DNA of 64,000 nt from a virus. The translations under genes and the position numbers were made by a program. Of this stretch, positions 32,467-55,278 are shown in pieces (position 1 is the first letter of the stretch; every line of letters begins with the position of its first letter). The stretch lies in the IMG/VR virus record IMGVR_UViG_3300030333_008334, positions 48,741 to 112,740 of that record; one strand, given 5' to 3'. A model generated the notes under the pieces. It was not told the DNA's origin. It was given only the letters and a program-made list of their open reading frames with translations, and searched no databases.

Positions 32467-34260
32467 TTATCTGACCGTCCCTCTTATATCTTTCAAAGGA
32501 AATTTGAGTTCCATAATTGTATCTTCTGGTACATCAATAAATCTTCCATCTGGTGAAATATGATGATCCATGTTAAAAACTACATTAGAGTATGGATTTC
32601 CACTTAAATTTCTTATCTTCACTGTCACTACGTCGACTACGCCTAGTGTATCATTTATTACATCATAAATTCTAGTTATTGCTAGCGGTTCCCCCATGTC
32701 ATAGGGATTCTGCATAAATTCTCTTAAACTACTGATTATATTATTAAATACATCGTACTTGTTAGTACCAGTTTCCGAAACGGCAACAAAATCAATTCCA
32801 AAATTAACAATCTTTCCATCCATTATATCAATGGTGTCGTTAATCATTTTATATTGACCTAGCCAAGTTTTTAAGTTATTTTTAATAGTGGGATTAGCGT
32901 TAGTTAAATTTCCGTCAGTATTTTCTGACAAGATATATAAATTTAAATTTCTCTTAAACGAATCATTATCGTGAGTTATATTGCAGCGCTTAATTGCTCC
33001 AAATCTAGGTGGCATTGCATAAATTAAACTAGTATAATCATTTCTTGTTACAGCTCTATTTTGAGCAGCAAAAAAATCTTTTGCGCGTCGCTTCAATTCT
33101 TCGCTATTAGGAATAGAGACGTCTCCAATTATTGGCAATTCGTTTACAACTTCCAATGACGACCTTACTAGAGATTTTTTTATTCCCGAAGATGCATCTT
33201 GATGAAATCTATAAATTGCCTCAGAGACGCTTGTAACAGTGCCGACTCCTGAATTAACTGTATTAAGTGAGTTTCTTCGTGTCAATACCGTTAAAGAGGT
33301 ATTTGTTGGTACTACTCCAAACTTGTCTGTAGAAAGAATTTTTGAAGGATCTAGATAATTTAATGTTTCGTAGGAGCGACCATGTCTTTTCATAACCAAA
33401 TTGCTAGGATGTACTATTGGATTGCTTCTAATTTCTGAATCTGATCCATACCCAAACCTCATATAAGTTGCGCCGGCTGAGTCTCTCTCAATCACGTATC
33501 TTCTAGGCACGCTCAATGCTTTTAAAATATTTGGAGCTAAGAATCTATCATCTCCAGTTGTAGGAATCGATCGATAAACTATATTTTGCGTCAAGTAATC
33601 AACTTCGTAATATGGATGACCTTCCTCATCAAATACAGAAATAACTTCTGTTACATTATCAATTGGAATTTCAAGTCTTAAGAACTTTTCAAATTCTCCT
33701 ACTTCAAGAACAACCTGCTCTAATTCTCCTGACATTACTTGACCGTAAGTTTTTATTGCATATCTACTAGGCGTTCCATCAACGCTTTCTGCTACAACAA
33801 CTTGATTATCTGGGCTGGCAAAATCTACATCATCGATAAGCACATATGTGGCGCCCGAATCAGAAGTAAATCTTGAGCCGCGGCGCAAAACTGGACAATA
33901 TGTAGCGTCTGGACCGGCGCCATTGCTAGCAGCAGGAGCTAAAATATAAAGAGCAATCTCACCAAAGGCGGCGCCGGGGCCTGGAATTTTATATCCCAGT
34001 TGCTCTGCGTGCTTTATAATATTATTATATTCAATGGCAGTTGTCATGAAAGATTCATTGACATTGTAATCTAAATAAAACGATAATATATCGCCAACGT
34101 ATGAAACAGTGTCTAGCATCAAGGATGCGAAGCCGGCATCAGAAAAATCCTTAACCGTATCCGGATAATATATTTTTGCGTATTCTTCTAGATCTTTTCT
34201 GATCGAAGAAAAGTCTCTACTAGTGTAGTCAATAGGGATTAACTTCTTCTCTTTGGCCAT
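32467..34260 (-). CDS. Baseplate wedge protein, gp6 / baseplate J family
   Basis: This 597-residue protein has the N-terminal signature of T4-type gp6 wedge proteins: IDYTSRDFSSIRKDLEEYAK, the DAGFASLMLDTVSYVGDILS region, and SFMTTAIEYNNIIKHAEQLG by residue 90. The C-terminal part contains the FFAAQNRAVTRNDYTSLIYA segment usual in this family. gp6 dimers form the inner ring of the baseplate and join the wedges around the hub. The gene lies next to the gp25-like gene, the conserved order in T4-like phages. Length is slightly below T4 gp6 (660 residues). A good GAGGAAATAAG site precedes the ATG. Confidence 0.9.
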   Translation of the reverse strand: MAKEKKLIPIDYTSRDFSSIRKDLEEYAKIYYPDTVKDFSDAGFASLMLDTVSYVGDILSFYLDYNVNESFMTTAIEYNNIIKHAEQLGYKIPGPGAAFGEIALYILAPAASNGAGPDATYCPVLRRGSRFTSDSGATYVLIDDVDFASPDNQVVVAESVDGTPSRYAIKTYGQVMSGELEQVVLEVGEFEKFLRLEIPIDNVTEVISVFDEEGHPYYEVDYLTQNIVYRSIPTTGDDRFLAPNILKALSVPRRYVIERDSAGATYMRFGYGSDSEIRSNPIVHPSNLVMKRHGRSYETLNYLDPSKILSTDKFGVVPTNTSLTVLTRRNSLNTVNSGVGTVTSVSEAIYRFHQDASSGIKKSLVRSSLEVVNELPIIGDVSIPNSEELKRRAKDFFAAQNRAVTRNDYTSLIYAMPPRFGAIKRCNITHDNDSFKRNLNLYILSENTDGNLTNANPTIKNNLKTWLGQYKMINDTIDIMDGKIVNFGIDFVAVSETGTNKYDVFNNIISSLREFMQNPYDMGEPLAITRIYDVINDTLGVVDVVTVKIRNLSGNPYSNVVFNMDHHISPDGRFIDVPEDTIMELKFPLKDIRGTVR

Positions 34261-34288: not shown

Positions 34289-34681
34289 CTATCTTTCAAT
34301 TATCATATCCAATACATCAACAGATGAAAGTGGTACAACTTCGTAAATTACTCTCACATTTAAAATTTCTTCTGCATATAATTCTTCAGTTTCTGTACCA
34401 GGATATTCTACGTCAATTAAATTTACGTAAGGTAAATATTGCTCTGTTTGTTGGTGTATTCTGCCTTTTAAAGAAGTTTTAGCATCTTCTCTCATTTCAA
34501 ATAAAAATCTTTTTATGCCTACGCCAAAATCAATATTCATCATTCTCTCACCAGGATTTGTAAGTAAAAGATTTTTAAAGTTTTGCTTTACCGTTTTTTT
34601 GTAAGTTTTTATAGATGCAAATTTCCCATCTCGTGGATTTATTGCTAAAGGTAACAATGGCGTTATTCCATAAATTGGCAT
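34289..34681 (-). CDS. Baseplate wedge subunit, gp25-like lysozyme fold
   Basis: This 130-residue protein matches the GPW/gp25 family: NFKNLLLTNPGERMMNIDFG near the middle, followed by GVGIKRFLFE. This is the family hallmark of a turn of the form NPGER plus a phenylalanine-rich helix. gp25 is a small conserved wedge component that initiates sheath polymerisation; it has a lysozyme-like name but no catalytic role. Length is equal to T4 gp25 (132). An AAGGAG ribosome site precedes the ATG. Its pairing with the gp6-like gene fixes this part of the window as the baseplate cluster. Confidence 0.92.
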   Translation of the reverse strand: MPIYGITPLLPLAINPRDGKFASIKTYKKTVKQNFKNLLLTNPGERMMNIDFGVGIKRFLFEMREDAKTSLKGRIHQQTEQYLPYVNLIDVEYPGTETEELYAEEILNVRVIYEVVPLSSVDVLDMIIER

Positions 34682-40600: not shown

Positions 40601-43600
40601 CCAGCAAATGTTTCTTCTTGAAAAGTTTCCCACATTTTATAGTTTTCGCTTCCAAATTGAACGTTAGCCGGCAAAGGATACCAGCCTTTTCCATACTGAA
40701 TGAAAAAATCAAATAAAGCACGTATATTATCTTCATACGCGAAATCAACAATAGCTTTATAATTTTTTGCGACATGTCTATTCTGTCCTACTTCTCCCAA
40801 CCATTCACATTGATTATTTAATATAACGGCAACATTATTATTATATCGATGTCGATTTCCATTTCGACCACGTGGCCAGTTTTGCATCCATCGATTCCAC
40901 CACTCATCTTCGTGTAATAATACTGCTGGTGTTCTTAATTTTAATGTTGGGCCATCATAATAATTTTTATCTGGCTCATTATACATGTCTGCATAGACAC
41001 CTTCTATATCTTTCATATCCGGACCATCTTCGTCAGCATGTTCTTCGATAACCGCATTTTGTCCATTCCATGGAAGACCTTTTAGCACCATACATTTTCC
41101 GTCAGGCTCTGACATGTGTGTGACTAGTCGACCTCGGCCTGGCATGATTGTAGAGCCGTCTTGCTCGCCGGTCGTGTGATCAATTGTTGATCTCAAAGTA
41201 CCATCATATTGACGGGGGTATCTCTCGACGTCATATGCGCTAGCAACATACTCGTCCATTTCTCCCATGATTTCAGCCATTTCTGCTGCAGCTGAAGCTT
41301 CACGAGCGGGGTCAGGACTAATAATTGCCTTGAAAGAACCGGCTTCTTTTTCAAATATCGTTTTAATACCATCAAAGATTGTATCCAAGACAATTTTGTT
41401 GCTTCTGGCAACTGACGGTAAAATACCTCCCGGTACCAAATCTTCACATTTAAAAGAAGGCATTTTATCTTTTAGCATGCTTGAAGGATCTTGTCTCATT
41501 AATGCCATTAAGTCTTTAATTTTATTCAAGTTTTCGTTTAATTCGTTTCGCAATTGTGCTTGAATTTCTTCTTCAGAAAAACCATGTTTTTCAAGCGCTT
41601 TTCTTTTGCCGGCCATTGAGTCAAAATCTTCACACAGATCGTCAACATAAGGAATATATTGTTCAAATTCATCACACACTTTTAAATCGATAAAAGCACC
41701 AACATGAGTAAAGAACATGCGTATATCTGGCAAAGTGCTCAAGGCAGGTAGATATTCTTGAAAATCTTTTTCGATCAAACCTCTAATCAAAATTAAAATA
41801 CTCTGCGGGCTTATTCCGTTGAAAAGATTACACATTTCTCTACCAGTCAGCATCTTAGCAACTGCTTTCATAAATTTAGCAGAATTATCAACCGGCAAAT
41901 TATAATTATCGAAAGCCTGAGTTAAAGCTGGACTTGGGGCAATAGCGTTTGCAAATGCAGGAACTTGATTTTCAAAAGCACCATACTCGCCTTCTCCGAC
42001 ATTTGGACCGGGGCCTTCTTCCGTCAGACATGCATTCATTAATTCTGACATCGCGCCGTCCATCAGTCCAGAAATAATACCAGCAGTCACTTTCCAAAGC
42101 GCATCCTCGTAAACATCCATTAAGTCGCCGTTCTCGCTAGTTACTTTTCCTAATTCCGGAAATACAAACTTAGGAGGAGTTGGCAAATCAGGTACAAAAT
42201 CTTCTAAGAATTCCCAATCAAAACTTCCGTCTGGCGTTGTGAAGTCATGTAGAACAGCTCCGGGGTCATCAAAAAAGTCGCCTGGAAGGTCTAAAACAAA
42301 TTGTGTAATATCAGCACATACTTTTTTAAAATCCAAGAACTGCTTTAGTTCTTCTATAAATGTGTCTATCTCGTTGCTAGCTATAGAAACATCAGACATA
42401 AATTGAGCGACGTCGCCTGTGGCACTAGCAACTTGGCCGGTCTGATCTTTGCTTCCGCCGGCCGCATATTCTTCATATCCTAAATTAGCAATTGCTCCAG
42501 TAGAATCAGCTGCTAATTCATGCTCAGCAAGAGCACCTTGAGCAGCTAGTTTTCCAGCTGCAGCTGCAGAAATATCATCCATTCTTTGCAAGCCCTGTTG
42601 TATAACACTAGGACCAGAAGCGGTTTCTCCTAAGAATATTTCTTCCGGAGTGCCTCCGAAGGCTGATGTTGTAATTCCGTCAACCATACCCATTGCCATG
42701 GCTCCAGAAACACCAAGCATTTTTCTCATCTCGCCGATGCCAATTGCTTTAAGAATTTCTCTAAACAGGTATTCACACAATGCTTCTCCGGTTAAGGGGA
42801 TACCGGCCAAGTTTGACAAGCATTTCATAATCTGCGCCCAGACATTCTTCATGTCAACTTGATTAAGAAGCTTTAGATAGATTTCTTCAAAGTCTCTCCA
42901 CTCTTGAGATTCTAGAAAAGATTTTTCAAAAATAGGATCATCATCTGAATCCATAATTCTCAAGCGCTCTGCTAACAATGCTGCTCGATCACGTATGGCC
43001 CATGGCCTATTGAGAAGTTCTAACTGTCTGTCTCTTTCTTGCCTGGTTAACACACTTTTTTTGTTTAACTCCATCAACTCGGCTTTTTCAGCTTGATCAT
43101 CTGATGGTGCTTCTTTTCCAGAGGGATATATTTTAATAGCGGGATATATTACAGCTGATATAAACTCTTGCCATTTGTCAGTATTCTTACTCCTTGCATC
43201 AAAAGAAATAATGTCCTTATAAAGAAAAGCCAAGTGCATGGTTGTAGGAGATATGTTGTCTCTTAGGCATTCGATTCCGACACTACATATGTTTAACGCA
43301 GCTGTATCTTGTCCAAATGCAATATGCATTAATTGCATATTATCTCCTCTAGCCATCAATTCAAGCATGCTGTTTTCTGTGGATAATCCATCAGGAAATC
43401 CTTCTGGATTATAGCCTTGGCCTGGATATTTTAAGAAGTCGTCTAACTGTCTAGGCAATCTTTCTAACTGCTTAGCTTCATGCTCTAAATCTACATGATC
43501 GATTGATCCGCCAGATGATTTAAAATTATCAACTCTCTTCTTGTATTTTCTTAGTATATTTGCAACTTTTTTCATCGCACTGTCGAACGACATCGCATTT

Positions 43601-45138
43601 AAATCATAAAACGCCTCAAAACAACCGCCATGTTGTTCACATTCGTTTTCATAATCAATTAATTTTGCCTTACTTATATCTCCATCAAAAGGTACACTAT
43701 CTAAAAATTTTCTAGGGCACGCTACTAAAATATAATGTTTTCCGTCGCGGGGCGATCGATAAATACCATAAGGGCCAGGCTTTTGTGATGGCGGCAAAAT
43801 GCCACTAATAAGCTGTACATCAGAATTAGGAATATGAGCAACTATATTTGTAACAGGCGCATATACCTCATTCCCGGGAACACCATCAGGAGAATATGGA
43901 TCTTGCTCTGATATTTTTGCTTCTAATTTTTTTGTGTCTCCTAGATCAACAGCCGATAAATCTTTCTTAAAAAATTTAAATATTTTCTGTATACCTTCTG
44001 TGCGCGCCATTAAATGTCCAGCAGCGCTGCCTACAACCTTGGTACACCAAAATTCTTCTCCCTGAAGACTGGGATCAGGCACTTCTAAATCAGGATCTTG
44101 CGACAAATAATCCCATTGCCAAGTTCTCAGCTGCAGCATTCTTAAGCGCCAGCCACTTAGGCCCCACTGTGGCTTTGTTGGCAACGGCGCGCTCGTTAAT
44201 CCTTCGGGTAGAAGAATATTTGGATTAGCTAATACCTTTTCGTAGCCATGATAATTTAATTGATATTCGCGAGTTTGAATTGCATCTAAGTTTTGTTGAG
44301 GGGTCGGAAGCGCTATTTGATCTAATTTTGGCCCCCAGCGTTCGCCTTTAATATAAGGACCATGCTTGTCTTTTGGCAAGCCAGGATAATATGTAGCGAA
44401 TGTCGGCAATCTAGTTAATATTGGAGTGCATAAATCCATTTCCTTGGCCCAGTTATAGCCACTCATTTTATCTAGAGAATTTGCTATAGGCTGTCCAGAG
44501 GGTAATAAATTCTGTGGCTCTGCACTTGGAACCGGGCGGGGATGCCATGGCGTATTTTGCGTCGGGGTCGGAGCATCTTCAGCTATTTCTTCTGCTTGAA
44601 TAGAAGCTGCTAATAAATTTGAAATTGCATTTCCAAAATTAGTTTGATCTAAAATAATTTCAGCATCATATGTAAAATTGTTACCAGAACCGGCGCCGCT
44701 AATCGCACTAAATGTAGTTCCACTCCAATTTGATTTCCAGCTAACAACAAAATCTGGGCTGCCTGACCATCCAGAATCAAAATTAGGCCAATCTTGTGCG
44801 ACTGTATCATCTAAATTAAGAACAAATAAGTCAGATAATGTCTCTGAATAGTTTATAGCGTCTGGTGCGGAAATATTATGATTTCCATTTGGACCTTCTG
44901 GAATTCCAACCGCTGCTCTTTGTATTTTTCTTTCATCACTAATTTGTGTAAAGAAATCAAAAAACGCGTTTGATATTGCCTGTCTGGCGCCTTTGATAAT
45001 TTCTCCCTTCGCCAGGTCGGACATTTCACTATTCCAGGCGCCGTTAACCTGTTGATATTCTTTCCAAAAAGCGCTGTGGTCTTGAATCTGACCGGCAAAC
45101 ACTGTGGCGGCGGCATTTATTTTTATTGTGTAACCCAT
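34699..45138 (-). CDS. Giant 3479-residue virion protein with C-terminal coiled coil
   Basis: This single frame of 10.4 kb lies between the spike-associated and gp25-like genes. No catalytic motif is visible. The N-terminal third has helical segments, one rich in Ala and Gly (near residue 850-920: AGKLAAQGALAEHELAADST). Central parts contain HxHxH-rich stretches (NHPDKSYHKHTYEID near residue 2105). Residues about 3255-3400 form a long acidic coiled coil. A Pro/Gly-rich hydrophobic region follows (FGFLFPPPPFGPGVGPP, FGFIYCLLLIIEG), which could insert in a membrane. Location suggests a hub or tail-tip component or a very large tape-measure-like protein. The function is unknown. Confidence 0.75.
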   Translation of the reverse strand: MGYTIKINAAATVFAGQIQDHSAFWKEYQQVNGAWNSEMSDLAKGEIIKGARQAISNAFFDFFTQISDERKIQRAAVGIPEGPNGNHNISAPDAINYSETLSDLFVLNLDDTVAQDWPNFDSGWSGSPDFVVSWKSNWSGTTFSAISGAGSGNNFTYDAEIILDQTNFGNAISNLLAASIQAEEIAEDAPTPTQNTPWHPRPVPSAEPQNLLPSGQPIANSLDKMSGYNWAKEMDLCTPILTRLPTFATYYPGLPKDKHGPYIKGERWGPKLDQIALPTPQQNLDAIQTREYQLNYHGYEKVLANPNILLPEGLTSAPLPTKPQWGLSGWRLRMLQLRTWQWDYLSQDPDLEVPDPSLQGEEFWCTKVVGSAAGHLMARTEGIQKIFKFFKKDLSAVDLGDTKKLEAKISEQDPYSPDGVPGNEVYAPVTNIVAHIPNSDVQLISGILPPSQKPGPYGIYRSPRDGKHYILVACPRKFLDSVPFDGDISKAKLIDYENECEQHGGCFEAFYDLNAMSFDSAMKKVANILRKYKKRVDNFKSSGGSIDHVDLEHEAKQLERLPRQLDDFLKYPGQGYNPEGFPDGLSTENSMLELMARGDNMQLMHIAFGQDTAALNICSVGIECLRDNISPTTMHLAFLYKDIISFDARSKNTDKWQEFISAVIYPAIKIYPSGKEAPSDDQAEKAELMELNKKSVLTRQERDRQLELLNRPWAIRDRAALLAERLRIMDSDDDPIFEKSFLESQEWRDFEEIYLKLLNQVDMKNVWAQIMKCLSNLAGIPLTGEALCEYLFREILKAIGIGEMRKMLGVSGAMAMGMVDGITTSAFGGTPEEIFLGETASGPSVIQQGLQRMDDISAAAAGKLAAQGALAEHELAADSTGAIANLGYEEYAAGGSKDQTGQVASATGDVAQFMSDVSIASNEIDTFIEELKQFLDFKKVCADITQFVLDLPGDFFDDPGAVLHDFTTPDGSFDWEFLEDFVPDLPTPPKFVFPELGKVTSENGDLMDVYEDALWKVTAGIISGLMDGAMSELMNACLTEEGPGPNVGEGEYGAFENQVPAFANAIAPSPALTQAFDNYNLPVDNSAKFMKAVAKMLTGREMCNLFNGISPQSILILIRGLIEKDFQEYLPALSTLPDIRMFFTHVGAFIDLKVCDEFEQYIPYVDDLCEDFDSMAGKRKALEKHGFSEEEIQAQLRNELNENLNKIKDLMALMRQDPSSMLKDKMPSFKCEDLVPGGILPSVARSNKIVLDTIFDGIKTIFEKEAGSFKAIISPDPAREASAAAEMAEIMGEMDEYVASAYDVERYPRQYDGTLRSTIDHTTGEQDGSTIMPGRGRLVTHMSEPDGKCMVLKGLPWNGQNAVIEEHADEDGPDMKDIEGVYADMYNEPDKNYYDGPTLKLRTPAVLLHEDEWWNRWMQNWPRGRNGNRHRYNNNVAVILNNQCEWLGEVGQNRHVAKNYKAIVDFAYEDNIRALFDFFIQYGKGWYPLPANVQFGSENYKMWETFQEETFAGLEFPEGFGTFPINHQRIVQSFKKYVYDIVMYPRRATEGQEIEYFRYQQDGKNPFGQGGVDPDGQPNHDKYSKMVLQDSSLLIPLQDLRDHGLVFSMPTQDFASLMDSRPRIFPFQRLRDTLSNPSYLGTQESYTRNLVPGKYMPIDGEEEVWTEGYWQQPDPNSEPVWVEGSYKKPGEWIPPRYEINAEKMTTKHIFKIPKKLASQHTLDVLGNSSFSPDKTGDNNRQNNAIGADVLNSLGQADPKAAKALRGVVSMAVTGKPDPTSDYTEQQEKSVTKIMDRLANSELSIEYELIESELLPNTHVHDDVCMVKVKNGGLTLAKQLERNAYPEYFTSLLEVLGMPEGEYPKTIAELFGMLVVSKIKNKIPGASPRSLTSPRDFTFPRESEEEIKEVFARYIHPKETNRILNEFRERTLLSPFFDLKFVDKFLQKLFLNSWSDICEFTGGTVSEKLLGIGPLREQVDERLREVLCRQPFEISTEDEKIAKERANYKKLVEDSRDEALGLEPIEEAVLDGLVQLRLRVSALQIMFEYMPTASVFDTTFVLSREFFRKTAFERVRNQLMQESEEYYELIASRCSAVILDELEGGSGITNHPDKSYHKHTYEIDENGDGWAVEIIEPGADPKGYGRPHRHRIKNYLVHTAWYNEDLEKNYSHKHLLESKHRRYEPELALEVIFDRQYTLIVTTINNLMDELGYANYRIKTQEEYAEKLTSMRFTTGLNPYQLYDTFQPSYFEEGEEINPAGNDKESGQLFINMNDPDNKLITYTEGGVLNQGDRKVGGALMSDGSHIYGKSFYTFESEKELFSEGGFVLQPYIYVQHKDKLGRKHEPGQNTKIYDVAFNRVKADGTPVEYPQPDPSSGDFYSFDYDQLVNSDPFVQYFQDQGRPKEKLNEYGVSSIKFWDDILQLIGGSFDYLYTAKAETPLGTRRPLGWNFDTSLMWNNVGLHPKENPAFWNNVVPKINGWFSTIYMFDSMRPCQGHFSYHSDTNTENIDQLSNAGKTNHDMWYQNTWSGIVDPTAPNSYNTTMLEEIMKSESRASMYAGECQAFIKVGVPCSRHYAATHDLEFDISGLPFATQETLESAGLDNLTGWRDVSFPFASPSGKNAHETYNSYIKDMGAPNIAFELGLNEDGTIDEIYLNEDGTGNVQAHDLGHFPVQNPNYTGTITFQSIYKQYLRALKAYRIQFYKEEGITYGAVNVGITPGFVLDGITTDETLVSAEGLFNPIDPMTGGYSQVQKDSYSQKISRAEHRALGAAFDHVAFLAFTFNNIKKNPAALEKQKAEGKEDDFGMDFMVQKTIDSAPETTNLSNEFADRGVHDQVIIRPSSATTPFFLGDIRIPTSNTQVITWQDVIDWAQWIMVTNDEYRNSVTGGGAWLYGVNEQEGPLALGRAFPRLYLEYGQNTETSTAGYETGTVNWNAIVSKERELAGDPLWADPDIDQSRGARLTFWTGQYETVTYPAKESVDAITLQYFADYFDCMKYGLRLLYVPPSKPYGMWPDTTNIEENTKIISKVDEAFDNLISRIEQNNLEGKANTGLKDLSNAYLASKAFDITEYMPNQKADTNLDVDSYSKQSWRLHPIPMADVRVNVEYIYCTAGPLEFSSFKPQEAGGRGTLMSGYYDALPILLQKLRSTPEYTLLFDHIFPYERLLSLTCMHTGLSNQDVRMENRFKATRETILDFIMSMIDQQELPFSMQKYGSVSNYKAGHSGTSTSAPDTAWTDIALRMLYTAPRLILKGVVTLTDPCVSTAIAINDLVMTVVQTSITVAEQVRDGSVASMNVVISELEGQIDILKQELELANSAVEIAELAVATAEAAQPRDEVFIDQLRQDFEEAEKAVNTVNETIATAENALGEARDTLNVFEQEVSDIINTIKGVVEALSPYIVPGISFAQMPSMIPFGFLFPPPPFGPGVGPPMTSFGFIYCLLLIIEGVIDDLDGKKQSIIEEYKDGSPQDACTVSPF
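37157..37207 (-). repeat. In-frame 18-base direct repeat, 33-base period
   Basis: GTGCCATCTTCATTTAAA occurs at 37157-37174 and again at 37190-37207 on the plus strand. The period of 33 bases equals 11 codons. In the minus-strand gene this gives two NEDGT motifs, within GLNEDGTIDEIYLNEDGTGN. It looks like a local tandem duplication in the 3479-residue protein gene. Confidence 0.7.
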
Positions 45139-45148
45139 ATTCTACTCT

Positions 45149-46156
45149 TTAATTTGTTAAATTATACCGGCTCAAGTGCGGCCACAGACCTTCATTTAAA
45201 ATTTTGTTATATTCTGATATTGGCAAAGGCTTGCTACCTAAACCCCAGTTTACTTTTAGATTTTTGAGTCTCTGCTGGTATTTGGACAATTCAGCTTTTT
45301 GTTGTTTTACTAATTGTAACTGAAGATTGGGTATTGTTTTAAGCAGTTCTTTAGAAATAGTAGTGTCTGTAAAATAAAACCCATAATGTTCATGTTCAAC
45401 TATATACTTCCACGACTGTATCAACCGGCTTAATGAGGCATCGAGTAATTCTGAAAGTTCTAACATATAATCAATTATCTTTTCCAATAAGACATTTAAG
45501 TTGAAGCCCTTAACTAATGGCTGTACAGCTCCAAGAATATATTTATCTGTTGCTGTTGACGTTTGATTTCCGGCTATTAAGTGAATTCCTCCAACTGATT
45601 TTATTTTTCCATTCTTCGGACCTCTAGAATCATAAGGATCTGTATACGTAACTAGTTTAATTGTACGGCGGCCAACGACTCTAACATCGTCGGCTTTAAT
45701 TCCAATTCCCGAAAGTGCTTTGGAATGAGGACCTTGTTTAATATTCAAATAATCATCTATGTCAGTCTTTTGGCTAATATAAATTCTTGCTGCATCATTT
45801 CGAAAATTAACATTTGTAAACATTTCTTCGCCATTTTTATAAGCTTCTGTTGATCGACCAACTACAATATCAATTGCGCCGCACTGTGTGTCGCCTAGGC
45901 CGCTGTATCCGCTAGCAACAGAACTTCTTCGATCGCGTCCTAAAACCACATAGCAATTGTTGACTTTACTCGATCCCGGCACTGTTTCTTCGCATGCAGC
46001 TTTAATATAAGTAGCAGAATTATCAATAGTTATATCACCTTGTATGCCACTTATTTTAGCAGCTGCAAGATCGATCGGAGACGCATTGTTGTGTACTCTT
46101 TGCTGCTCTGGACTTAAATTTTCATCTCTTTTGATAGCGGGTTTTTTTTCTGACAT
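45149..46156 (-). CDS. Spike-associated virion protein, probable baseplate hub component
   Basis: This 335-residue protein is encoded directly after the OB-fold spike gene. Residues about 35-180 are beta-rich and repetitive (GAIDIVVGRSTEAY, ARIYISQKTDIDDYLNIKQG, GIGIKADDVRVVGRRTIKLV), resembling a beta-helix or prism such as the gp5 C-terminal needle. A helical C-terminal half follows, with KIIDYMLELSELLDASLSRL and a Lys/Gln-rich coil. In T4, spike and needle are one protein (gp5). Here the needle-like part may be a separate chain. That is inference from the pattern and gene order. Confidence 0.65.
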   Translation of the reverse strand: MSEKKPAIKRDENLSPEQQRVHNNASPIDLAAAKISGIQGDITIDNSATYIKAACEETVPGSSKVNNCYVVLGRDRRSSVASGYSGLGDTQCGAIDIVVGRSTEAYKNGEEMFTNVNFRNDAARIYISQKTDIDDYLNIKQGPHSKALSGIGIKADDVRVVGRRTIKLVTYTDPYDSRGPKNGKIKSVGGIHLIAGNQTSTATDKYILGAVQPLVKGFNLNVLLEKIIDYMLELSELLDASLSRLIQSWKYIVEHEHYGFYFTDTTISKELLKTIPNLQLQLVKQQKAELSKYQQRLKNLKVNWGLGSKPLPISEYNKILNEGLWPHLSRYNLTN

Positions 46157-46165
46157 TTATATACC

Positions 46166-48631
46166 TTACTTTCTCAGTTCTTTTATCATATCAATAATTG
46201 AAGTATTGACATGATTTCCATTAGATAACATTTGTGCTGCAGAAGGAACTCCATTGAATAGACATAGCCAATCAGCTGCATGAGTGCTTTGTGTTTGTAT
46301 CATGGCTTCAAAATTACCCCAAACTTGCCTGGTCTTCGGATCTTGTCTTCCTGTGCCTAACACCGGAGCAAACGCAACGCCTGCTCGGTTTGCTAATTCC
46401 CAATTAGTTTTCCATTTCTTTGTCTGTGTATTTGCTCCGCCGGTTTCGCCTGACGAATATTGCATTGGAGAAAAAATATCAAACATTTTATTAATTTGTG
46501 TTTGCACTGGCTTTAATGCCGGCTGGGCTCGATATGTCATACAACAGTTAGCCAATGGTATACCCGGAGCCACAGCTCTAAAGGCTTTAAGAAACTCAGC
46601 TAAACGACCAGCGGGATCTTCATAGAAGGGCTGACCTTCAACTCCACACCAGTGTTTTTCTGCATTAACCCAGTGACATTTAGATCCGAGCGCTTTGGCT
46701 GCTTTTCCTGCCACAGTACCTTCAACCTTTGCTCTCTCATAATCAGTCGCATAAACCCATGACCATGTATGAAAAGAAATACCAGCTGACTCGCACAGGC
46801 GTTTTTGTTGCTTCGATTGTTCTAAGAATTTAGAACTATTTCTTCCGTCAGCGCATTTAGCCGCCATAAACGACAAATGCTTTAGATTTTCTATTTCCAA
46901 TACCGGGCCTTTAAGCCCGCTGACTGTGTTCATAAGCCCAACTGCAGGGCCGTTTTCTTTTCTTTCTACGGCTGCGGCTACTTTTCCAGCTAATGGTCTG
47001 TGGCTGTAAACTCGACATGGACGACATTCTGGGGGCTTTGGCCACTTTTCAAGTTTGTTTTGCAAATCTTCTATTAGCTTTTCTGTTGCAGCTAATTCAT
47101 CTTTTAGGCTTTGCGGAACATCTGTGCCGGCAGCTTTTATTTTGTCCTGTATTTCTTTTCTCTGTTTTTGTAATCGGTTTAAATCATTGACAACAGCGCT
47201 TCTAGAGGAGCTGTTGATTTTCTGACCCATTTTTTTGTACGCTTCTTTCATTCCGTCAATTAAGCTTTTCTTTTTCTCATCTTTCTCTTTGGCTGTAGCG
47301 TCAGAGCCCTCTTCTTTAACTTCTTTAGCAGATTCTTTTCCTTCGGCGCCGGGGGCTGGCTTCGCTGCTCTTGCAGTTGCGCCAAATTTTACTGCAATGC
47401 TTGAAACATATTCTTTTGCACCTTCGGGATCCATATGAACACCATCGCCCGTTGTTTTTCTAGCCATATAATTCGGAACAAACTTTTCCCAATTTTTAAT
47501 TGGATCAATAAAGTGAAGTTTGGATCCAAAACCCCACATTTTTGCCAGTTCCTTTCTCATATTAGAATTTACAGTAGACCGGTAAGTAAATGATCCGGGA
47601 TTATTAATTTGATGTGATTCTCCACTTACTCGGCCGCCGGGTACAACCGGGGGGCAAGCTGCAACAATAATAACTCCAGATGTAGTTCCACTAGTCCAGC
47701 CACATTCTTGTCGTATTCTTTTTACCAAAGTAGCAATATCTGTGCCAGCTTTCGCGGTGTCGTCACCTCTGTTATTGCCGCCCAAGCTAATAAAAATTAA
47801 ACCAGGCTTGTTTTTTTTAAAATAATCTTTTGCACAGCCCCATAATTTAAAAGCAGTCTTATTACATCTTTCTCCTGCTAGCCAGGCTGAAACTTTTGCT
47901 CCGGAGCGGCCGATGCGTTCTGTTTTCCATCCAGTGCTTTTCATATACGCCTGCATTGTTTTGCCTAATTCTAATTTTATCTGACTATCGCCAATTATTA
48001 AACACTTATCGTTGCCTTTTTTTGGCACCAAAGAACCTTTTGCAATTGGAAAAGTACTAGTATCTATTGTGCTAGACTTAGATTTGGCTGGCTGCAGGCA
48101 TCCATCAACGCAAACCTCGCCAGCGATGCGTGCTGACGTAGTAGTTGCCGGCTGGCCGATGAGTGAACCCAGCGGAGGCTGCTCGATCGGACCTAAAAGT
48201 ATTGCGCCCTTCCAAGTTTGTTTGTTTTGAAAATCAACCCAGACTAAATCACCAACTTTTGGTTCAAAAACATTATTGTCAGTGGCCGTAAAAGTATGGT
48301 GCATATCAATCACATGGTGATCTTCAGAATTTTTAGGTTCAGGTATCGGAGCGTGAACCTCTGGAATTCTTACTTTTACCTGTGTTCTTACAGAAGCCTC
48401 GGCCTGTTTAAATCCTGAATCAGTCGGATCCCAACCATGAGTTTCGATACGTAAAACATATCCTAAATATGGACCTGTATTATGAAAAACATCCGATTCG
48501 TAATGTTTTTCCGAAATCCGCAACATGGCTCTGACCCAATTGTTATCAGTGCTGTCTTTTCTTTCAGCAGAGCCAGGCTTCAAGATTGGATTTAGTTGGC
48601 CCCATGCGTATTTTGGAAAGGGAATACTCAT
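46166..48631 (-). CDS. Multidomain baseplate spike: OB fold, SGNH esterase, barrel-like C-terminal domain
   Basis: In this 821-residue protein, residues 1-170 resemble the OB-fold start of gp5/gpV spikes (LGYVLRIETHG, VKVRIPEVHAP, KVGDLVWVDF, GAILLGPIEQPP). Residues about 205-410 carry the SGNH hydrolase blocks: GDS near 212, GGNN near 282, and DGVHMD near 395 supplying Asp and His. A Lys/Glu-rich coiled segment (about 430-540) leads to a 240-residue domain with alternating strands and helices (LEIENLKHLSFMAAKC, FHTWSWVYATDYE, DIFSPMQYSS, VAFAPVLG). This suggests a glycosidase-like barrel. T4 gp5 carries a lysozyme in this place. The enzyme pair probably opens host surface polysaccharide during infection. 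Confidence 0.75.
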   Translation of the reverse strand: MSIPFPKYAWGQLNPILKPGSAERKDSTDNNWVRAMLRISEKHYESDVFHNTGPYLGYVLRIETHGWDPTDSGFKQAEASVRTQVKVRIPEVHAPIPEPKNSEDHHVIDMHHTFTATDNNVFEPKVGDLVWVDFQNKQTWKGAILLGPIEQPPLGSLIGQPATTTSARIAGEVCVDGCLQPAKSKSSTIDTSTFPIAKGSLVPKKGNDKCLIIGDSQIKLELGKTMQAYMKSTGWKTERIGRSGAKVSAWLAGERCNKTAFKLWGCAKDYFKKNKPGLIFISLGGNNRGDDTAKAGTDIATLVKRIRQECGWTSGTTSGVIIVAACPPVVPGGRVSGESHQINNPGSFTYRSTVNSNMRKELAKMWGFGSKLHFIDPIKNWEKFVPNYMARKTTGDGVHMDPEGAKEYVSSIAVKFGATARAAKPAPGAEGKESAKEVKEEGSDATAKEKDEKKKSLIDGMKEAYKKMGQKINSSSRSAVVNDLNRLQKQRKEIQDKIKAAGTDVPQSLKDELAATEKLIEDLQNKLEKWPKPPECRPCRVYSHRPLAGKVAAAVERKENGPAVGLMNTVSGLKGPVLEIENLKHLSFMAAKCADGRNSSKFLEQSKQQKRLCESAGISFHTWSWVYATDYERAKVEGTVAGKAAKALGSKCHWVNAEKHWCGVEGQPFYEDPAGRLAEFLKAFRAVAPGIPLANCCMTYRAQPALKPVQTQINKMFDIFSPMQYSSGETGGANTQTKKWKTNWELANRAGVAFAPVLGTGRQDPKTRQVWGNFEAMIQTQSTHAADWLCLFNGVPSAAQMLSNGNHVNTSIIDMIKELRK

Positions 48632-48636
48632 TTAAT

Positions 48637-48933
48637 CTATTCCTGATTGATTAAATCAAATAATTCTTCTTTATCTTTATTTGTTAGGCCAGCTTCAGCG
48701 TTATTTTTCTTATGCATAAGACCGGTTATTTTCACCAACTGTTCGTTCGATCTCTGCAATGTTTCTAGATATTTGGCCGCTACAGGGCCAAAATATTGGT
48801 GCTTAGAATCATCAGTTTTAATATGATTCATAAGATCAGTTAGCAATTTCATTGCCACTGCACGGTCATGCTTTATATTCTGTATTGCATCGACAATACA
48901 TTCTTCAGCATCTATATTTCGCCCCTTTCCCAT
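48637..48933 (-). CDS. Small helical phage protein of unknown function
   Basis: This 98-residue, fully helical, charged protein starts MGKGRNIDAEECIVDAIQNI and contains a GPVAAKYLETLQRSNEQLVK segment in its middle. It starts 22 bases inside the end of the late sigma factor gene and ends six bases before the spike gene. It could be a small chaperone or assembly factor; small terminase-like proteins are also helical and of this size, but no DNA-binding motif is clear. The ribosome site is weak, so expression may depend on translational coupling. Confidence 0.65.
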   Translation of the reverse strand: MGKGRNIDAEECIVDAIQNIKHDRAVAMKLLTDLMNHIKTDDSKHQYFGPVAAKYLETLQRSNEQLVKITGLMHKKNNAEAGLTNKDKEELFDLINQE

Positions 48934-49613
48934 TTTTTTCGAAAAACCCTATATTTGATTCTCATTTTGTTTAAGTTGTTTACAACTTGTTTGGTATTAA
49001 GGCCAGTAATTTCCCTAATATATAGATAAATAGCTTTTTTATTAAAAATTTCAATTTGATCGGAAGTTTCGAAAAGAATTTTAATTGCTTCTAGCACTTT
49101 GCGCTCATTATCTTTGAGCTTCATTTTTTCCCAACTTTGAATTTCAACCCAAAAATTGTTCCAAAATTCATATTGTTCGCGGGCGTGGGCATATGCGTTG
49201 TCTATAGACAAATATTCACACTCTAGATCATTTGTCAAATCATCCATATGGACTTCTCTTTTAATACTTCTAGCGTTTTTCTTAGTCTTGTGAATAAACC
49301 AATTTTTAGTTATAACGCTGAAATATGAAAAAGCTTTTGATCCTTTCTTGGGATCATATTTGTCCAATATAGTAGTAAGCCATATCTTACATTCTTCCTT
49401 TAAGACATCAATATTCGGAAGATTGGTGAACTTATATGTGTATACTATCTTGTCAACCATTTCATTAAAGGCCGGCTGGATCCACTTTATGTAAAGCTCT
49501 GTTCTTATTTTATTATCGTTTGTAGAAGCATATCTTACAATTGCCTCTTCGTGAATTTTTGTAAAGTAATCGTTTTTAGTTCTGCGGCGACGGCGTTTTT
49601 TCTTCTGTATCAT
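48912..49613 (-). CDS. Late-transcription sigma factor, T4 gp55-like
   Basis: This gene encodes about 233 residues from the ATG at 49611-49613, which has AGGAAG six bases upstream. An ATG six codons earlier lacks a suitable site. After a very basic N-terminus (KKKRRRRRTK) comes a compact sigma-2-like region: FTKIHEEAIVRYASTNDN, a tyrosine- and tryptophan-containing helix (CKIWLTTILDKYDPKKGS), and AFSYFSVITKNWFIHKTKK, close to gp55. The C-terminus has a helix-turn-helix-like part. gp55 directs host RNA polymerase to late promoters with gp33 and the gp45 clamp. The gene stands just ahead of the virion block it would activate. It overlaps the upstream membrane protein gene by 38 bases. Confidence 0.85.
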   Translation of the reverse strand: MIQKKKRRRRRTKNDYFTKIHEEAIVRYASTNDNKIRTELYIKWIQPAFNEMVDKIVYTYKFTNLPNIDVLKEECKIWLTTILDKYDPKKGSKAFSYFSVITKNWFIHKTKKNARSIKREVHMDDLTNDLECEYLSIDNAYAHAREQYEFWNNFWVEIQSWEKMKLKDNERKVLEAIKILFETSDQIEIFNKKAIYLYIREITGLNTKQVVNNLNKMRIKYRVFRKKWERGEI

Positions 49614-49962
49614 CTGTTTCTTCCTGTTCATCTTCTAAAAAGAAATATTTTTCCCTATAGAAAGAAATTTCATCGATTACTACGCCCATATGTTGAATTA
49701 AAGCTTCTAAAGTTGGGTCACCGTAAAACATTTCCATTTCGTATATCTCTTGCAGATGATTCTCAAAGCCCGACATGCCGCTCAGCATTTTATAAAAATC
49801 ATCATCTATTTCATTATAGTGAGCCATAGTTTTTCTTATGTACCACACTAAGCCACAAACTATTAATATTGTTATAAAAAGCAGTAATTCTACGTATCCT
49901 ATAACATATCCTATTAAAACGGCGTTAATAAGCAATGATATTCCTATTAATATTTGTGTCAT
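49576..49962 (-). CDS. Small two-helix membrane protein with acidic tail
   Basis: This 128-residue protein has two close hydrophobic segments at residues 3-22 and 25-42 (LIGISLLINAVLIGYVIGYV, LLLFITILIVCGLVWYI). A soluble part of about 85 residues follows, containing EIYEMEMFYGDPTLEALIQH, and a tail of Glu, Asp and Thr. Its ATG overlaps the preceding stop (ATGA). Proteins of this design are common in T4-like marine phages near the late sigma gene. I recall the FYGD-type motif but no assigned function. It may act at the inner membrane. Confidence 0.65.
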   Translation of the reverse strand: MTQILIGISLLINAVLIGYVIGYVELLLFITILIVCGLVWYIRKTMAHYNEIDDDFYKMLSGMSGFENHLQEIYEMEMFYGDPTLEALIQHMGVVIDEISFYREKYFFLEDEQEETDDTEEKTPSPQN

Positions 49963-50880: not shown

Positions 50881-51715
50881 CATATAACCAACGGCCGCAC
50901 CCGGGACTGTTCAACTGTTTCGTCGGATCATTTAAATATAGTATTTCAATATTATTTTCTCGTAAATGCTTGTCAAGCTGATATTCTACATTATCACCCC
51001 AATCTTTTTGATATTGTTTATATTTTTCTATAGGGGGATAGGCTTTTTCTTTTTCGTAAAGTGAGCAATAAACATCCATTGAAGATGGAGCGCCCATAGA
51101 AAAACCATCAAATAGAAAATTATCCATAAAACGATTGCCCTCGGGGCATTTCCAGCCACCAAAAACAAATATCTTATTTTCCAAGTCTCCCACTAAAGCT
51201 GCAGTCTTTTCTATATCTATAAACGTTTTGAAAGTTGAGTCAAATCGACTGCGTATTACCAAATCATATTCTATATTATTTTCTTTTTCATATTCACGCA
51301 TCAAATTATTACATGCATGCATTTTATACAATTGTCTTTTCTTTAGCCATTCCCACTTTGTTATTTTTTCTATTTCGTTATTGTCTTCGTTGATATCTTC
51401 ACTTTCTATCACAAGTTTTTTCAGCTGTTCGCCATAAACTTTATTTATCTTCTTTTCTAGTTTGTCTATCTCTACATTGTATATTTTGCCATATGTGCCA
51501 AGCATTTTTCGCCAGCCTACATGGCCAGGAAGATAATCAATTACAATTTCGTCTCTTGGTGGTATATGAGGCTTTAAATTTCTTTTTTGAGATACTGCAT
51601 CAGAAGTATGGATGAATATATCTACCTGATTATTTTTTATAAAAGCTTGCTTGTGATTTTCATAAACATCCCAAAAGCGACCTACATGACCTGAATAACA
51701 TAACGCTACTTTCAA
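50867..51715 (-). CDS. Glycosyltransferase-like protein of the carbohydrate island
   Basis: This 282-residue protein starts with TTG at 51713-51715, within a TTGA overlap after the cytidylyltransferase stop; AGGAAAAAAA serves as ribosome site. The N-terminus (MKVALCYSGHVGRF) and YDLVIRSRFDSTF near residue 150 fit a GT-A-like group of capsule transferases, where the (R)xRFD segment could correspond to the DxD metal site. Also present are GAPSSMDVY and DNVEYQLDKHL near 210-250. I infer transfer of a sugar onto a glycan. No signal or membrane segment is present. Confidence in the superfamily is moderate. Confidence 0.6.
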   Translation of the reverse strand: MKVALCYSGHVGRFWDVYENHKQAFIKNNQVDIFIHTSDAVSQKRNLKPHIPPRDEIVIDYLPGHVGWRKMLGTYGKIYNVEIDKLEKKINKVYGEQLKKLVIESEDINEDNNEIEKITKWEWLKKRQLYKMHACNNLMREYEKENNIEYDLVIRSRFDSTFKTFIDIEKTAALVGDLENKIFVFGGWKCPEGNRFMDNFLFDGFSMGAPSSMDVYCSLYEKEKAYPPIEKYKQYQKDWGDNVEYQLDKHLRENNIEILYLNDPTKQLNSPGCGRWLYDVYR

Positions 51716-52401
51716 TTTTTTTTCCTATTTGCCAAATATAATTTTTCAGCTACTTCAAATTGCCAGTCATAATCAATATCAAAACATTCGCGCTCAGGCA
51801 TCGAGAATAGCTCAATATCGCCATCTTTGCGAAAGTCACCCATCCATATGCCTTTGCCAATTAAATCCATTCTACCGGCATATAAGCAGTGTGCTGCCTC
51901 ATATGTAACATCAACCACTTTTGTATTCATTACAGCACCTTTGAGAGTTGTCAAACTCTGGCCCTTATCATTCCAAAAGTAGTTTTTCTTTTCCATAACT
52001 CCAAACATTCCAACAGAATCTGAATTCAAATATGCCTCGATAAAGCCATCGATTGTTTCAGGCTGCAAAAAAGGAGCGCATGCATTGATTAAAACACAAT
52101 ATTTATAAGGTAATTTATCCCACCAATCGTACATTTCAGTCATTGGAGTTCCTTCTGAATTAGCAGACGCTTCTGATCGATCAAATATATTCAAGCCGTG
52201 TTTTAGTGCAATATCTTTTAGCTCTGTTTCATATGCAGATAAAAAGAAGTTTTCTTGCTTAAGAACTTTACATTCTTTAATCTTTGCCATGGCAATATCT
52301 GTTAATGTAGTTCCGGCAAATGGCTTTGTCATCTTCCGCGGAACTCTTTGAGATCCCATCCTTGCTTGAATTATAAAACATACGTCATTAATATCTTTCA
52401 T
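51712..52401 (-). CDS. CMP-nonulosonic acid synthetase-like cytidylyltransferase (NeuA/PseF type)
   Basis: This 229-residue protein has the cytidylyltransferase signature near its N-terminus (FIIQARMGSQRVPRK), then NACAPFLQPETID near residue 91 and DIDYDWQFEVAEKL near the end. The last is typical of acylneuraminate cytidylyltransferases, whose Asp residues bind metal. Such enzymes join CTP to sialic, pseudaminic or legionaminic acid to give the CMP-activated donor. A sialic-acid-type synthase is encoded in the same island, strengthening that reading. The family also includes SpsF-like enzymes for other sugars, and ARMGS is closer to that branch. An AAAGGAAAATA site precedes the ATG. Confidence 0.8.
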   Translation of the reverse strand: MKDINDVCFIIQARMGSQRVPRKMTKPFAGTTLTDIAMAKIKECKVLKQENFFLSAYETELKDIALKHGLNIFDRSEASANSEGTPMTEMYDWWDKLPYKYCVLINACAPFLQPETIDGFIEAYLNSDSVGMFGVMEKKNYFWNDKGQSLTTLKGAVMNTKVVDVTYEAAHCLYAGRMDLIGKGIWMGDFRKDGDIELFSMPERECFDIDYDWQFEVAEKLYLANRKKN

Positions 52402-52410
52402 TATTTTCCT

Positions 52411-52899
52411 TTATTGTGTCTTGTTTTCCCATAAATATTTAAAATGCTTTAGGAAAATTGAACTAAATTGTCTACTTCTTATTAACATATAACTTTCGTC
52501 ATGACGGTTTATGGAAGCGTTAAAAAAATTACAAGTCCCTGTTAAAGCTTTCTCTTTATCAATTATAATCATCTTATGATGTAAGAGTTCGCCATTGTAC
52601 ATTTTAATTTTATTTTTATCTATCCCATTGGCTATTAAATATTTTGGTATGTTTGTTTCTCTTTTTTGGTCTACATCTTTTATTTTATCTTCAAATGATC
52701 TCTTATCTAAGATAATTTTAACATCTACGCCACGGTGAGCGGCTCTTAAAAGAGCATTTGCAATCGGAATCCAAGTAAACCAAAATACCATAATATGTAT
52801 TTTTTTTTCAGCTTTATCTATTTCCTGAATTACGAAATGCTCAATGTCTTGCTCAGGCCCAAGTAAAAGATCTTCTATATTAACTAAGAAATTCTTCAA
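52411..52899 (-). CDS. Single-HKD phospholipase D-like protein (nuclease or transferase)
   Basis: This 162-residue protein carries one HKD motif near residue 107 (HHKMIIIDKEKALTGTCNFF), preceded by the usual strand/helix pattern (KIHIMVFWFTWIPIANALL, RGVDVKIILDK). Single-motif PLD proteins of about 160 residues, such as the Nuc family, act as dimers to cut DNA or RNA. No signal peptide is seen. The apparent start is TTG at 52897-52899, overlapping the nucleotidyltransferase end by 20 bases, with GGGAGA somewhat distant. It sits unexpectedly among sugar genes. Hydrolysis or transfer of a phosphodiester in a glycan is an alternative role. Confidence 0.75.
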   Translation of the reverse strand: MKNFLVNIEDLLLGPEQDIEHFVIQEIDKAEKKIHIMVFWFTWIPIANALLRAAHRGVDVKIILDKRSFEDKIKDVDQKRETNIPKYLIANGIDKNKIKMYNGELLHHKMIIIDKEKALTGTCNFFNASINRHDESYMLIRSRQFSSIFLKHFKYLWENKTQ

Positions 52900-54237: not shown

Positions 54238-55278
54238 TTATTTTTCCAACGGAAAAGCTTGACGAGAGATATCTGTCGTCATATTGAAAGGATGGCCTTC
54301 TCCTAAATTTTGAAATTTAATCTTTTTATGTGCTTGCAAGTCGTTTAAAATATAATCCCAAAAAGCTACATATTGACGTCGAAACATATTATAATCCAGC
54401 GATTTCTGGCTATATCTCTTGTCTTTCTGAAAAGCATGATTATGCAAATCTCCTCTTTTTGTACTCTTGGACATACCGTCAAAGCCTATAAAATGTATTT
54501 CTCTTGGTTGTAGGTCGACAGCCAAAGCAATCAAACGCGGAGCAGATCCAATCTTTCCTCTATATCTAGTATGCAAAAACATTGCTCTAGTTGGATATCT
54601 TTCTGTTAAAATTTTAAAATCTTCTTTCTTTTCTTGCAAAATATTATTGTGTTGGTCGTCGATACAAACTAAAGTATCGTTATTATCTAAATATTTGAAT
54701 ATTTCATCATCTTTATTTTTTTTACGAAAATCAATCTCGCCGGCAAAAGTTGATAATGTAACATTATGTTCTTTAAGTTTCTTATTTAAATAAAAATGAT
54801 TACAAGAAAAGACATGATCATATTCTTTCGGATCCCAATCATATTCGCTAGCAGTTGGGCCGGCAGCGACGATCAACAATTTTGTTCCTCTTACTTCTTT
54901 TAGTTTTTCCTTATTTGAATAAAACATCTCATTGTTACAGACAATATTATTATCAAAATAATTAAAAAAATGTCTTTTAACAAATCCTATATCTAATCCA
55001 TTTCCAATAATCCACTTTTCCCTAGGTGTTAGAAAATATGCGCTCTTTGAATCATATGATTCTCTAGTAGCATCAGTAGAAAAAACATTCTTAGTATCTA
55101 AATCAAGCCACAATGATTCATATTCTTCTTTTTCTGAATATAGATTAACAAACTTTCTTATGGCGTCTTCTATGGCCGCAGGTGGAATGCTGCAATGTTT
55201 AATCAGTGCTTGCCTTAGACTATTTATGTTATTTATCTTATAACAGTTATTCCAAACAACATTATCTAGATTTTGCAT
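54238..55278 (-). CDS. Sialyltransferase-like protein (CstII/GT42 or Maf-type fold), paralogue A
   Basis: This 346-residue protein has a Rossmann-like glycosyltransferase core from residue 132: LLIVAAGPTASEYDWD, then YDHVFSCNHFY (153-163), then PREIHFIGFDG (258-268), and NHAFQKDKR with a conserved His at 281. The same pattern and order is present in Campylobacter CstII as I remember it: a GxGPSxxEID start, a CNQFYF motif, and a late GIDFY, plus a catalytic histidine. The Maf flagellin pseudaminyl transferases use a related domain. It ends with a hydrophobic helix. The next gene is a shorter paralogue. Donor choice is inferred from the CMP-sugar genes nearby. Confidence 0.65.
   Translation of the reverse strand: MQNLDNVVWNNCYKINNINSLRQALIKHCSIPPAAIEDAIRKFVNLYSEKEEYESLWLDLDTKNVFSTDATRESYDSKSAYFLTPREKWIIGNGLDIGFVKRHFFNYFDNNIVCNNEMFYSNKEKLKEVRGTKLLIVAAGPTASEYDWDPKEYDHVFSCNHFYLNKKLKEHNVTLSTFAGEIDFRKKNKDDEIFKYLDNNDTLVCIDDQHNNILQEKKEDFKILTERYPTRAMFLHTRYRGKIGSAPRLIALAVDLQPREIHFIGFDGMSKSTKRGDLHNHAFQKDKRYSQKSLDYNMFRRQYVAFWDYILNDLQAHKKIKFQNLGEGHPFNMTTDISRQAFPLEK

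What the first reader, a model, noticed from the sequence alone, without database searches (positions are those of the whole stretch)
46166..48631. Baseplate spike with an esterase and a barrel-like domain instead of lysozyme
The OB-fold N-terminus marks the protein as a gp5/gpV-type spike. Where T4 has a lysozyme, this one has SGNH hydrolase blocks (GDS, GGNN, DGVH) and a coiled linker. A further 240-residue strand-helix domain suggests a glycosidase-type TIM barrel. A spike removing acetyl groups and cutting glycan would act on surface polysaccharide, which may link to the nonulosonic acid island.
Basis: partly seen in the sequence, partly recalled or inferred. Interest (0 to 1): 0.7.

Follow-up and report, generated by a model that had tools for sequence, protein, structure and literature searches.

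The report
Phage spike with esterase and glycosidase
An uncultured phage carries, on the protein that pierces its host's wall, two different enzyme domains (one that probably strips acetyl groups and one that probably cuts sugar chains), and its relatives carry other wall-cutting enzymes at the same place, which suggests the pair works together on the bacterial cell wall rather than on the outer sugar coat.

Summary
The 821-aa ORF (minus strand, 46166-48631) has an OB-type N-domain, an SGNH hydrolase domain with the complete catalytic set (S216, G244, N286, D396/H399), a helical linker and a (beta/alpha)8-like C-domain. A full-length relative (L168, 50% identical) conserves all of it. The OB domain is the constant N-terminus of a baseplate cassette in about 100 lineages of uncultured phages, fused to exchangeable modules. 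Nearly every recognisable module cuts peptidoglycan (VanY/M15, amidase, M23, SLT, phage lysozyme, GH25). SGNH occurs in eight lineages, always with a second module in the same polypeptide or a tandem paralogue; where Pfam recognises the partner, it cuts the glycan backbone. My best reading: the SGNH domain removes O-acetyl groups from peptidoglycan so that the neighbouring glycosidase-type domain can cut the wall, as Ape1 does for LtgA in Neisseria. NeuB-type nonulosonic acid genes are not enriched with SGNH spikes (3/7 vs 11/26), so that link is unsupported. No activity was tested; capsule or LPS deacetylation stays open. SGNH domains in tail lysins are precedented (phi11/80alpha Tal), so this is a new variant of a known kind.

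The parts
46166..48631 (-). Baseplate spike/hub protein, 821 aa: OB domain + SGNH hydrolase + helical linker + TIM-barrel-like domain
48137..48631 (-). N-terminal OB-type domain (residues 1-165; strands 55-148), conserved in 133 ORFs of related contigs
47387..48019 (-). SGNH/GDSL hydrolase domain (residues 205-415)
47984..47986 (-). Predicted nucleophile Ser216 (GDSQ)
   Evidence: conserved in the SGNH spikes as GDS or GAS
47435..47446 (-). Block V D396-G-V-H399 (predicted Asp and catalytic His)
   Evidence: DGxH or PGVH in all SGNH spikes
47045..47293 (-). Helical, probably coiled-coil linker (residues 447-529)
46169..46954 (-). C-terminal (beta/alpha)8-like domain (residues 560-821), predicted glycosidase
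   Evidence: conserved in L168 (43%)
46658..46660 (-). Glu658 in VNAEK, directly after predicted strand 4 of the barrel: candidate catalytic acid
   Evidence: topology; conserved in L168; role inferred
48637..48933 (-). 98-aa protein of the cassette, upstream of the spike
   Evidence: conserved in about 100 related ORFs
48912..49631 (-). 239-aa conserved protein (called sigma-like in my notes by appearance only), marker gene of the cassette
45149..46156 (-). 335-aa conserved protein directly after the spike (inferred baseplate/spike partner)
34289..34681 (-). gp25-type baseplate wedge protein
   Evidence: GPW_gp25, E 5.4e-10
32467..34260 (-). gp6-type baseplate wedge protein

Best explanation
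This is the cell-piercing hub/spike lysin of an uncultured contractile-tailed phage. The OB domain anchors it in the baseplate, as T4 gp5 is anchored. After contraction the protein is pushed into the periplasm. There the SGNH domain removes O-acetyl groups from peptidoglycan (MurNAc C6-O-acetyl is the obvious candidate), and the TIM-barrel-type domain, tethered by a helical linker, cuts the glycan strand that is thereby exposed. It would be a one-protein version of the Ape1 esterase plus LtgA transglycosylase pair of Neisseria. Shown here: domain layout, complete SGNH catalytic set, conservation in a relative, baseplate locus, peptidoglycan hydrolases in the same slot of relatives, SGNH never without a second module. 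Inferred: the peptidoglycan substrate, the order of action, the activity of the C-domain, trimeric assembly.
For: The slot after the same OB domain holds, in 93 related ORFs, VanY 23, Amidase_2 8, M15_4 8, Phage_lysozyme2 6, M23 3, SLT 3, muramidase 2, and one each of phage lysozyme, M74, GH25 and GH19; long members add VanY and amidase, both in one protein in L183. A TIM-barrel muramidase (GH25) sits there in L207. SGNH is in eight lineages, all with a second module, against 20 of 93 others (Fisher p 1.5e-5; the test is partly favoured by the length rule used). The recognised partners cut glycan: SLT in L199 (E 5e-5, above cutoff), Phage_lysozyme2 in L017 (2.1e-19), L018 (2e-4) and, weakly, L026 (0.01). 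In all, 4 of 4 recognised SGNH partners, against about 11 of 45 modules elsewhere (p about 0.006). Published: O-acetylation of MurNAc blocks lysozyme, and Ape1 is an SGNH O-acetylpeptidoglycan esterase (PMC6174289); O-acetylation also blocks transglycosylases, and LtgA and Ape1 form a complex and stimulate each other (PMC7083599).
Against: No activity data. The C-domain has no convincing sequence match in Pfam, NCBIfam or PDB, nor in the phage, plasmid, viral-contig or genome collections apart from L168. It is modelled from two sequences only; folded alone it is poor (pLDDT 47). The SGNH fold cannot tell peptidoglycan esterases from capsule deacetylases or transferases. The partner test uses few lineages and a Pfam tally. 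The host, and whether its wall is O-acetylated, are unknown.
Confidence: 0.52

Rival explanations
1. Surface polysaccharide processing: the SGNH domain deacetylates capsule, O-antigen or a sialic-acid-like sugar, and the C-domain cuts that polysaccharide.
For: A phage SGNH tailspike that deacetylates capsule is proven (Aristophanes gp41, PMC8471582), and Vi and c341 phages deacetylate O-antigen (PMC5380687). The window holds NeuB-type (56881-57708), cytidylyltransferase (51712-52401) and MptE/Maf-like genes. Foldseek also hits GH79 heparanase/glucuronidase.
Against: The known cases are tailspikes or fibres, not the OB-bearing central hub. Peptidoglycan hydrolases dominate this slot in relatives. 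NeuB occurs in 3/7 SGNH and 11/26 non-SGNH contigs.
Confidence: 0.2
2. The SGNH domain is a lipase/phospholipase that helps the spike pass a membrane, and the C-domain is the wall-cutting enzyme.
For: SGNH proteins include lipases, and PAF acetylhydrolase is the top SGNH hit.
Against: Fold hits include the peptidoglycan and polysaccharide SGNH enzymes (PatB, an LPS acetyltransferase domain) within a factor of about 25 in E-value, so the fold does not favour lipids; recognised partners are glycan-cutting enzymes.
Confidence: 0.12
3. The C-domain is no enzyme but a TIM-barrel-derived glycan-binding or structural domain, with the SGNH domain as the only active enzyme.
For: Position 656 is Asn where a DxE pair would be expected in GH18/GH25-type sites (my reading of known motifs); no family match.
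Against: Glu658, the region around it (LGSKxHWVNAEKxW) and H621, T622, W623 are conserved with L168.
Confidence: 0.16

Closest known systems
T4 gp5 (baseplate hub and tail lysozyme)
   Same: OB N-domain followed by a wall enzyme, encoded among baseplate genes such as gp6
   Different: SGNH plus barrel domain in place of the lysozyme; no C-terminal beta-helix in this protein; a separate conserved 335-aa protein follows; sequence relation of the OB domains is weak
Staphylococcus phage phi11 Gp44 / 80alpha gp59 (Tal)
   Same: SGNH domain in a tail-tip lysin, suggested to act on the cell wall (PMC7048315; phi11 Gp44 endopeptidase + SGNH, PMC5380687)
   Different: Gram-positive siphophage, gp27-type rather than OB N-terminus, no barrel domain; its enzymatic activity was also not shown
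Neisseria Ape1 (peptidoglycan O-acetylesterase) with LtgA
   Same: SGNH esterase working beside a glycan-cutting enzyme; fold hits include the related PatB
   Different: bacterial, two separate proteins in a complex; substrate proven there, inferred here
Acinetobacter phage Aristophanes gp41
   Same: phage structural protein with SGNH domain that deacetylates a polysaccharide
   Different: tailspike of an Autographiviridae phage acting on capsule; no glycosidase domain reported in the passages I read
GH18/GH25/GH79 TIM-barrel glycosidases
   Same: alternating strand/helix barrel with Glu after strand 4; GH18 and GH79 among the PDB fold hits
   Different: no significant sequence similarity; Asn in place of the Asp of a DxE pair

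Membership tests
SGNH/GDSL hydrolase | Ser in block I, Gly in block II, Asn in block III, Asp-x-x-His in block V | tested here: met
   S216, G244, N286, D396/H399; S, N and block V aligned with the other SGNH spikes
SGNH/GDSL hydrolase | alpha/beta/alpha SGNH fold | tested here: met
   model pLDDT mostly 77-95 over the domain; PDB hits PAF-AH, PatB, Cj0610c with TMt 0.55-0.64
SGNH/GDSL hydrolase | Pfam curated cutoff reached | tested here: not met
   Lipase_GDSL_2 23.7 bits against cutoff 32.9; a divergent member, and the cutoff is not itself a defining feature of the superfamily
T4 gp5-type OB spike | N-terminal OB domain related to gp5 | tested here: inconclusive
   five strands modelled; profile-profile match to nine gp5 OB domains P 0.0017, score 25.8 vs best of 50 column shuffles 17.6, in register, but hhalign probability only 15%
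T4 gp5-type OB spike | encoded with baseplate wedge genes | tested here: met
   gp25 and gp6 downstream; OB gene in a conserved cassette in 111 of 127 loci
T4 gp5-type OB spike | lysozyme domain | tested here: not met
   no lysozyme family match
T4 gp5-type OB spike | C-terminal triple-stranded beta-helix | tested here: not met
   C-terminus is alpha/beta in the model
TIM-barrel glycosidase | (beta/alpha)8 fold | tested here: inconclusive
   strand/helix order fits eight repeats and PDB GH hits occur, but pLDDT 42-88 and only two rows of alignment cover the domain
TIM-barrel glycosidase | catalytic Asp/Glu pair of a known GH family | tested here: inconclusive
   E658 conserved with L168, but N656 instead of Asp; no family match
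Peptidoglycan O-acetylesterase (Ape1-like) | hydrolysis of MurNAc O-acetyl | not testable with these tools
   needs an enzyme assay

The most novel reading that the evidence does not exclude
The central spike of a contractile-tailed phage carries a dedicated peptidoglycan de-O-acetylase fused to an undescribed TIM-barrel muralytic family, so that the phage removes the wall's O-acetyl protection and cuts it with one protein; the same slot works as a cassette in which uncultured phages exchange wall enzymes.
Probability: 0.4. Interest if true: 0.68.

Novelty: new variant of a known kind. Interest (0 to 1): 0.5.

Why it matters
Peptidoglycan O-acetylation is a known block to lysozymes and transglycosylases, so phages that meet it should need an answer; I found no paper in the library that shows one in a phage spike (limited search). 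The SGNH spikes are a concrete, small, expressible set for testing it, and the OB cassette with about 100 lineages gives a ready comparison of exchangeable wall enzymes in phages whose spikes have no relatives in the GenBank phage collection searched.

Tried and rejected
Direct tblastn of the whole protein or its domains in GenBank phages and of the C-domain in plasmids: no match. C-domain pattern scans of viral and genome contigs: only L168. PDB sequence searches with the full protein, the C-domain, the OB profile and the 335-aa profile: only chance hits. C-domain folded alone: pLDDT 47, not used for fold search. Profile match of the C-domain to the GH25 spike L207: none. Profile match of the 335-aa family or the OB family to the Mel-JY01-type spikes: weak. 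A regex for lysozyme-like modules was too loose (it matched the window protein itself) and is not used as evidence. Rejected: the SGNH-nonulosonic acid link, by NeuB counts.

Full report
What is there. The ORF at 46166-48631 lies on the minus strand and encodes 821 aa. It starts 5 nt after the stop of a 98-aa gene. The window is part of a 112.7-kb viral record. The protein has no tblastn relative in 50,697 GenBank phage records.

Domains. Pfam finds a weak GDSL match over residues 271-405 (E 7.7e-5, below cutoff). The four SGNH blocks are complete: S216, G244, N286 and D396/H399. AlphaFold2 on a 30-row alignment made from the window and related contigs gives an OB-type region (five strands, 55-148), an SGNH region (205-415, pLDDT mostly 77-95), helices at 447-529 and a strand-helix series from 563 to 820. 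Foldseek with that model returns SGNH structures (PAF-AH, PatB, Cj0610c, an LPS acetyltransferase periplasmic domain) and TIM-barrel glycosidases (GH79, GH18) in the PDB. The output gives no query ranges, so the assignment of each hit to a domain is my inference from target type and length. The C-domain rests on two sequences; alone it folds badly.

Relatives. GenBank phages Mel-JY01, LR756508 and immuto share the neighbouring baseplate genes gp25 and gp6 and the 239-aa gene upstream of the spike. Scans of IMG/VR with those neighbours gave 160 loci. Iterated profile search then found the OB domain in 133 ORFs (120 distinct). An OB domain lies between the 239-aa gene and the 335-aa gene in 111 of 127 loci. 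A scan with the OB alignment found L168, whose 840-aa protein is 50% identical and has all three domains. Codon third positions change most in every domain, as expected of a protein under selection. The OB family itself matches no Pfam or PHROGs family convincingly. It shows a weak but in-register profile match to T4-like gp5 OB domains, above 50 column shuffles.

What sits after the OB domain elsewhere. Of 93 members scanned, Pfam recognises VanY in 23, Amidase_2 in 8, M15_4 in 8, Phage_lysozyme2 in 6, M23 in 3, SLT in 3, muramidase in 2, and single cases of phage lysozyme, M74, M15_3, GH25 and GH19. Ten long members give VanY or amidase in most, both in L183. L207 has a GH25 barrel. Exceptions include a tyrosine-phosphatase-like module in L037. 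So the slot is mainly one for peptidoglycan enzymes.

SGNH in this slot. A model built from nine SGNH domains finds them in the spikes of the window, L168, L015 (with L170, L177), L199 (two), L035, L018, L017 and L026, plus a separate gene right after the spike in L197. Merging near-identical loci gives eight lineages with SGNH in the spike, all with a second module, against 20 of 93 other lineages (Fisher p 1.5e-5). The criterion '450 aa or more after OB, or a tandem paralogue' favours SGNH proteins that are long anyway, so the p-value is only a guide. Where Pfam recognises the partner it cuts glycan: SLT in L199, Phage_lysozyme2 in L017, L018 and weakly L026. L015 and L035 look transglycosylase-like by eye only (one search gives a sub-threshold Transglycosylas hit for L015). 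The partner of the second SGNH spike of L199 is not identified.

Mechanism. O-acetylation at C6 of MurNAc blocks lysozyme, and the SGNH enzyme Ape1 is an O-acetylpeptidoglycan esterase (PMC6174289). The modification also blocks transglycosylases, and Ape1 and LtgA form a complex and enhance each other (PMC7083599). A spike with an SGNH domain tethered to a glycosidase-type domain would do both steps at the site of penetration. This is inference; the substrate is untested. Capsule deacetylation by a phage SGNH tailspike is proven elsewhere (PMC8471582), so it remains the main rival.

Nonulosonic acid island. NeuB-type genes are present in the window and L168, but over the contigs searched they are in 3 of 7 SGNH contigs against 11 of 26 others. 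Many contigs are fragments, so this shows no link rather than excluding one.

Verdict. SGNH in a tail lysin is precedented (PMC5380687, PMC7048315); the combination with an OB hub and a barrel domain, and its recurrence with glycan-cutting partners, is the new part.

Noticed in passing
L037:4863-6602: OB-spike whose C-terminal module carries a tyrosine/dual-specificity phosphatase signature (HCTHGADRTG; Y_phosphatase3 E 2.5e-4, just below cutoff), an odd cargo for a phage spike.
   Followed up: partly
L017, L018, L026, L066 (three each), L035, L037, L194, L199 (two each): Two or three tandem OB-spike paralogues, in several loci with different enzyme modules; they might build a mixed trimer.
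   Followed up: partly
L021:10901-14878 and L025:10984-14211: Spikes with a long region that looks alpha/beta-hydrolase-like by eye; in L021 it precedes a VanY domain (Pfam E 2.7e-7).
   Followed up: no
L197:7463-8692: Separate SGNH gene directly after an OB spike (model E 4.7e-8; GDSQ, GGND, DGLH).
   Followed up: partly
window 34699-45138 and 19283-30937: Two giant ORFs (3479 and 3884 aa) flanking gp25/gp6; the first shares only patches with relatives, the second is well conserved.
   Followed up: no
window 51712-52401, 54238-56164, 56881-57708: Cytidylyltransferase, two MptE/Maf-like proteins and a NeuB-type protein: a sugar cassette; NeuB is 88% identical in the contig of L168.
   Followed up: partly
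window 52411-52899: Short PLD-like protein (PLDc_2, E 2.3e-25) inside the sugar cassette, without relatives in the fetched loci.
   Followed up: no
L200:5911-8637: OB spike with a long C-terminal region that looks barrel-like by eye and matches no Pfam family.
   Followed up: no
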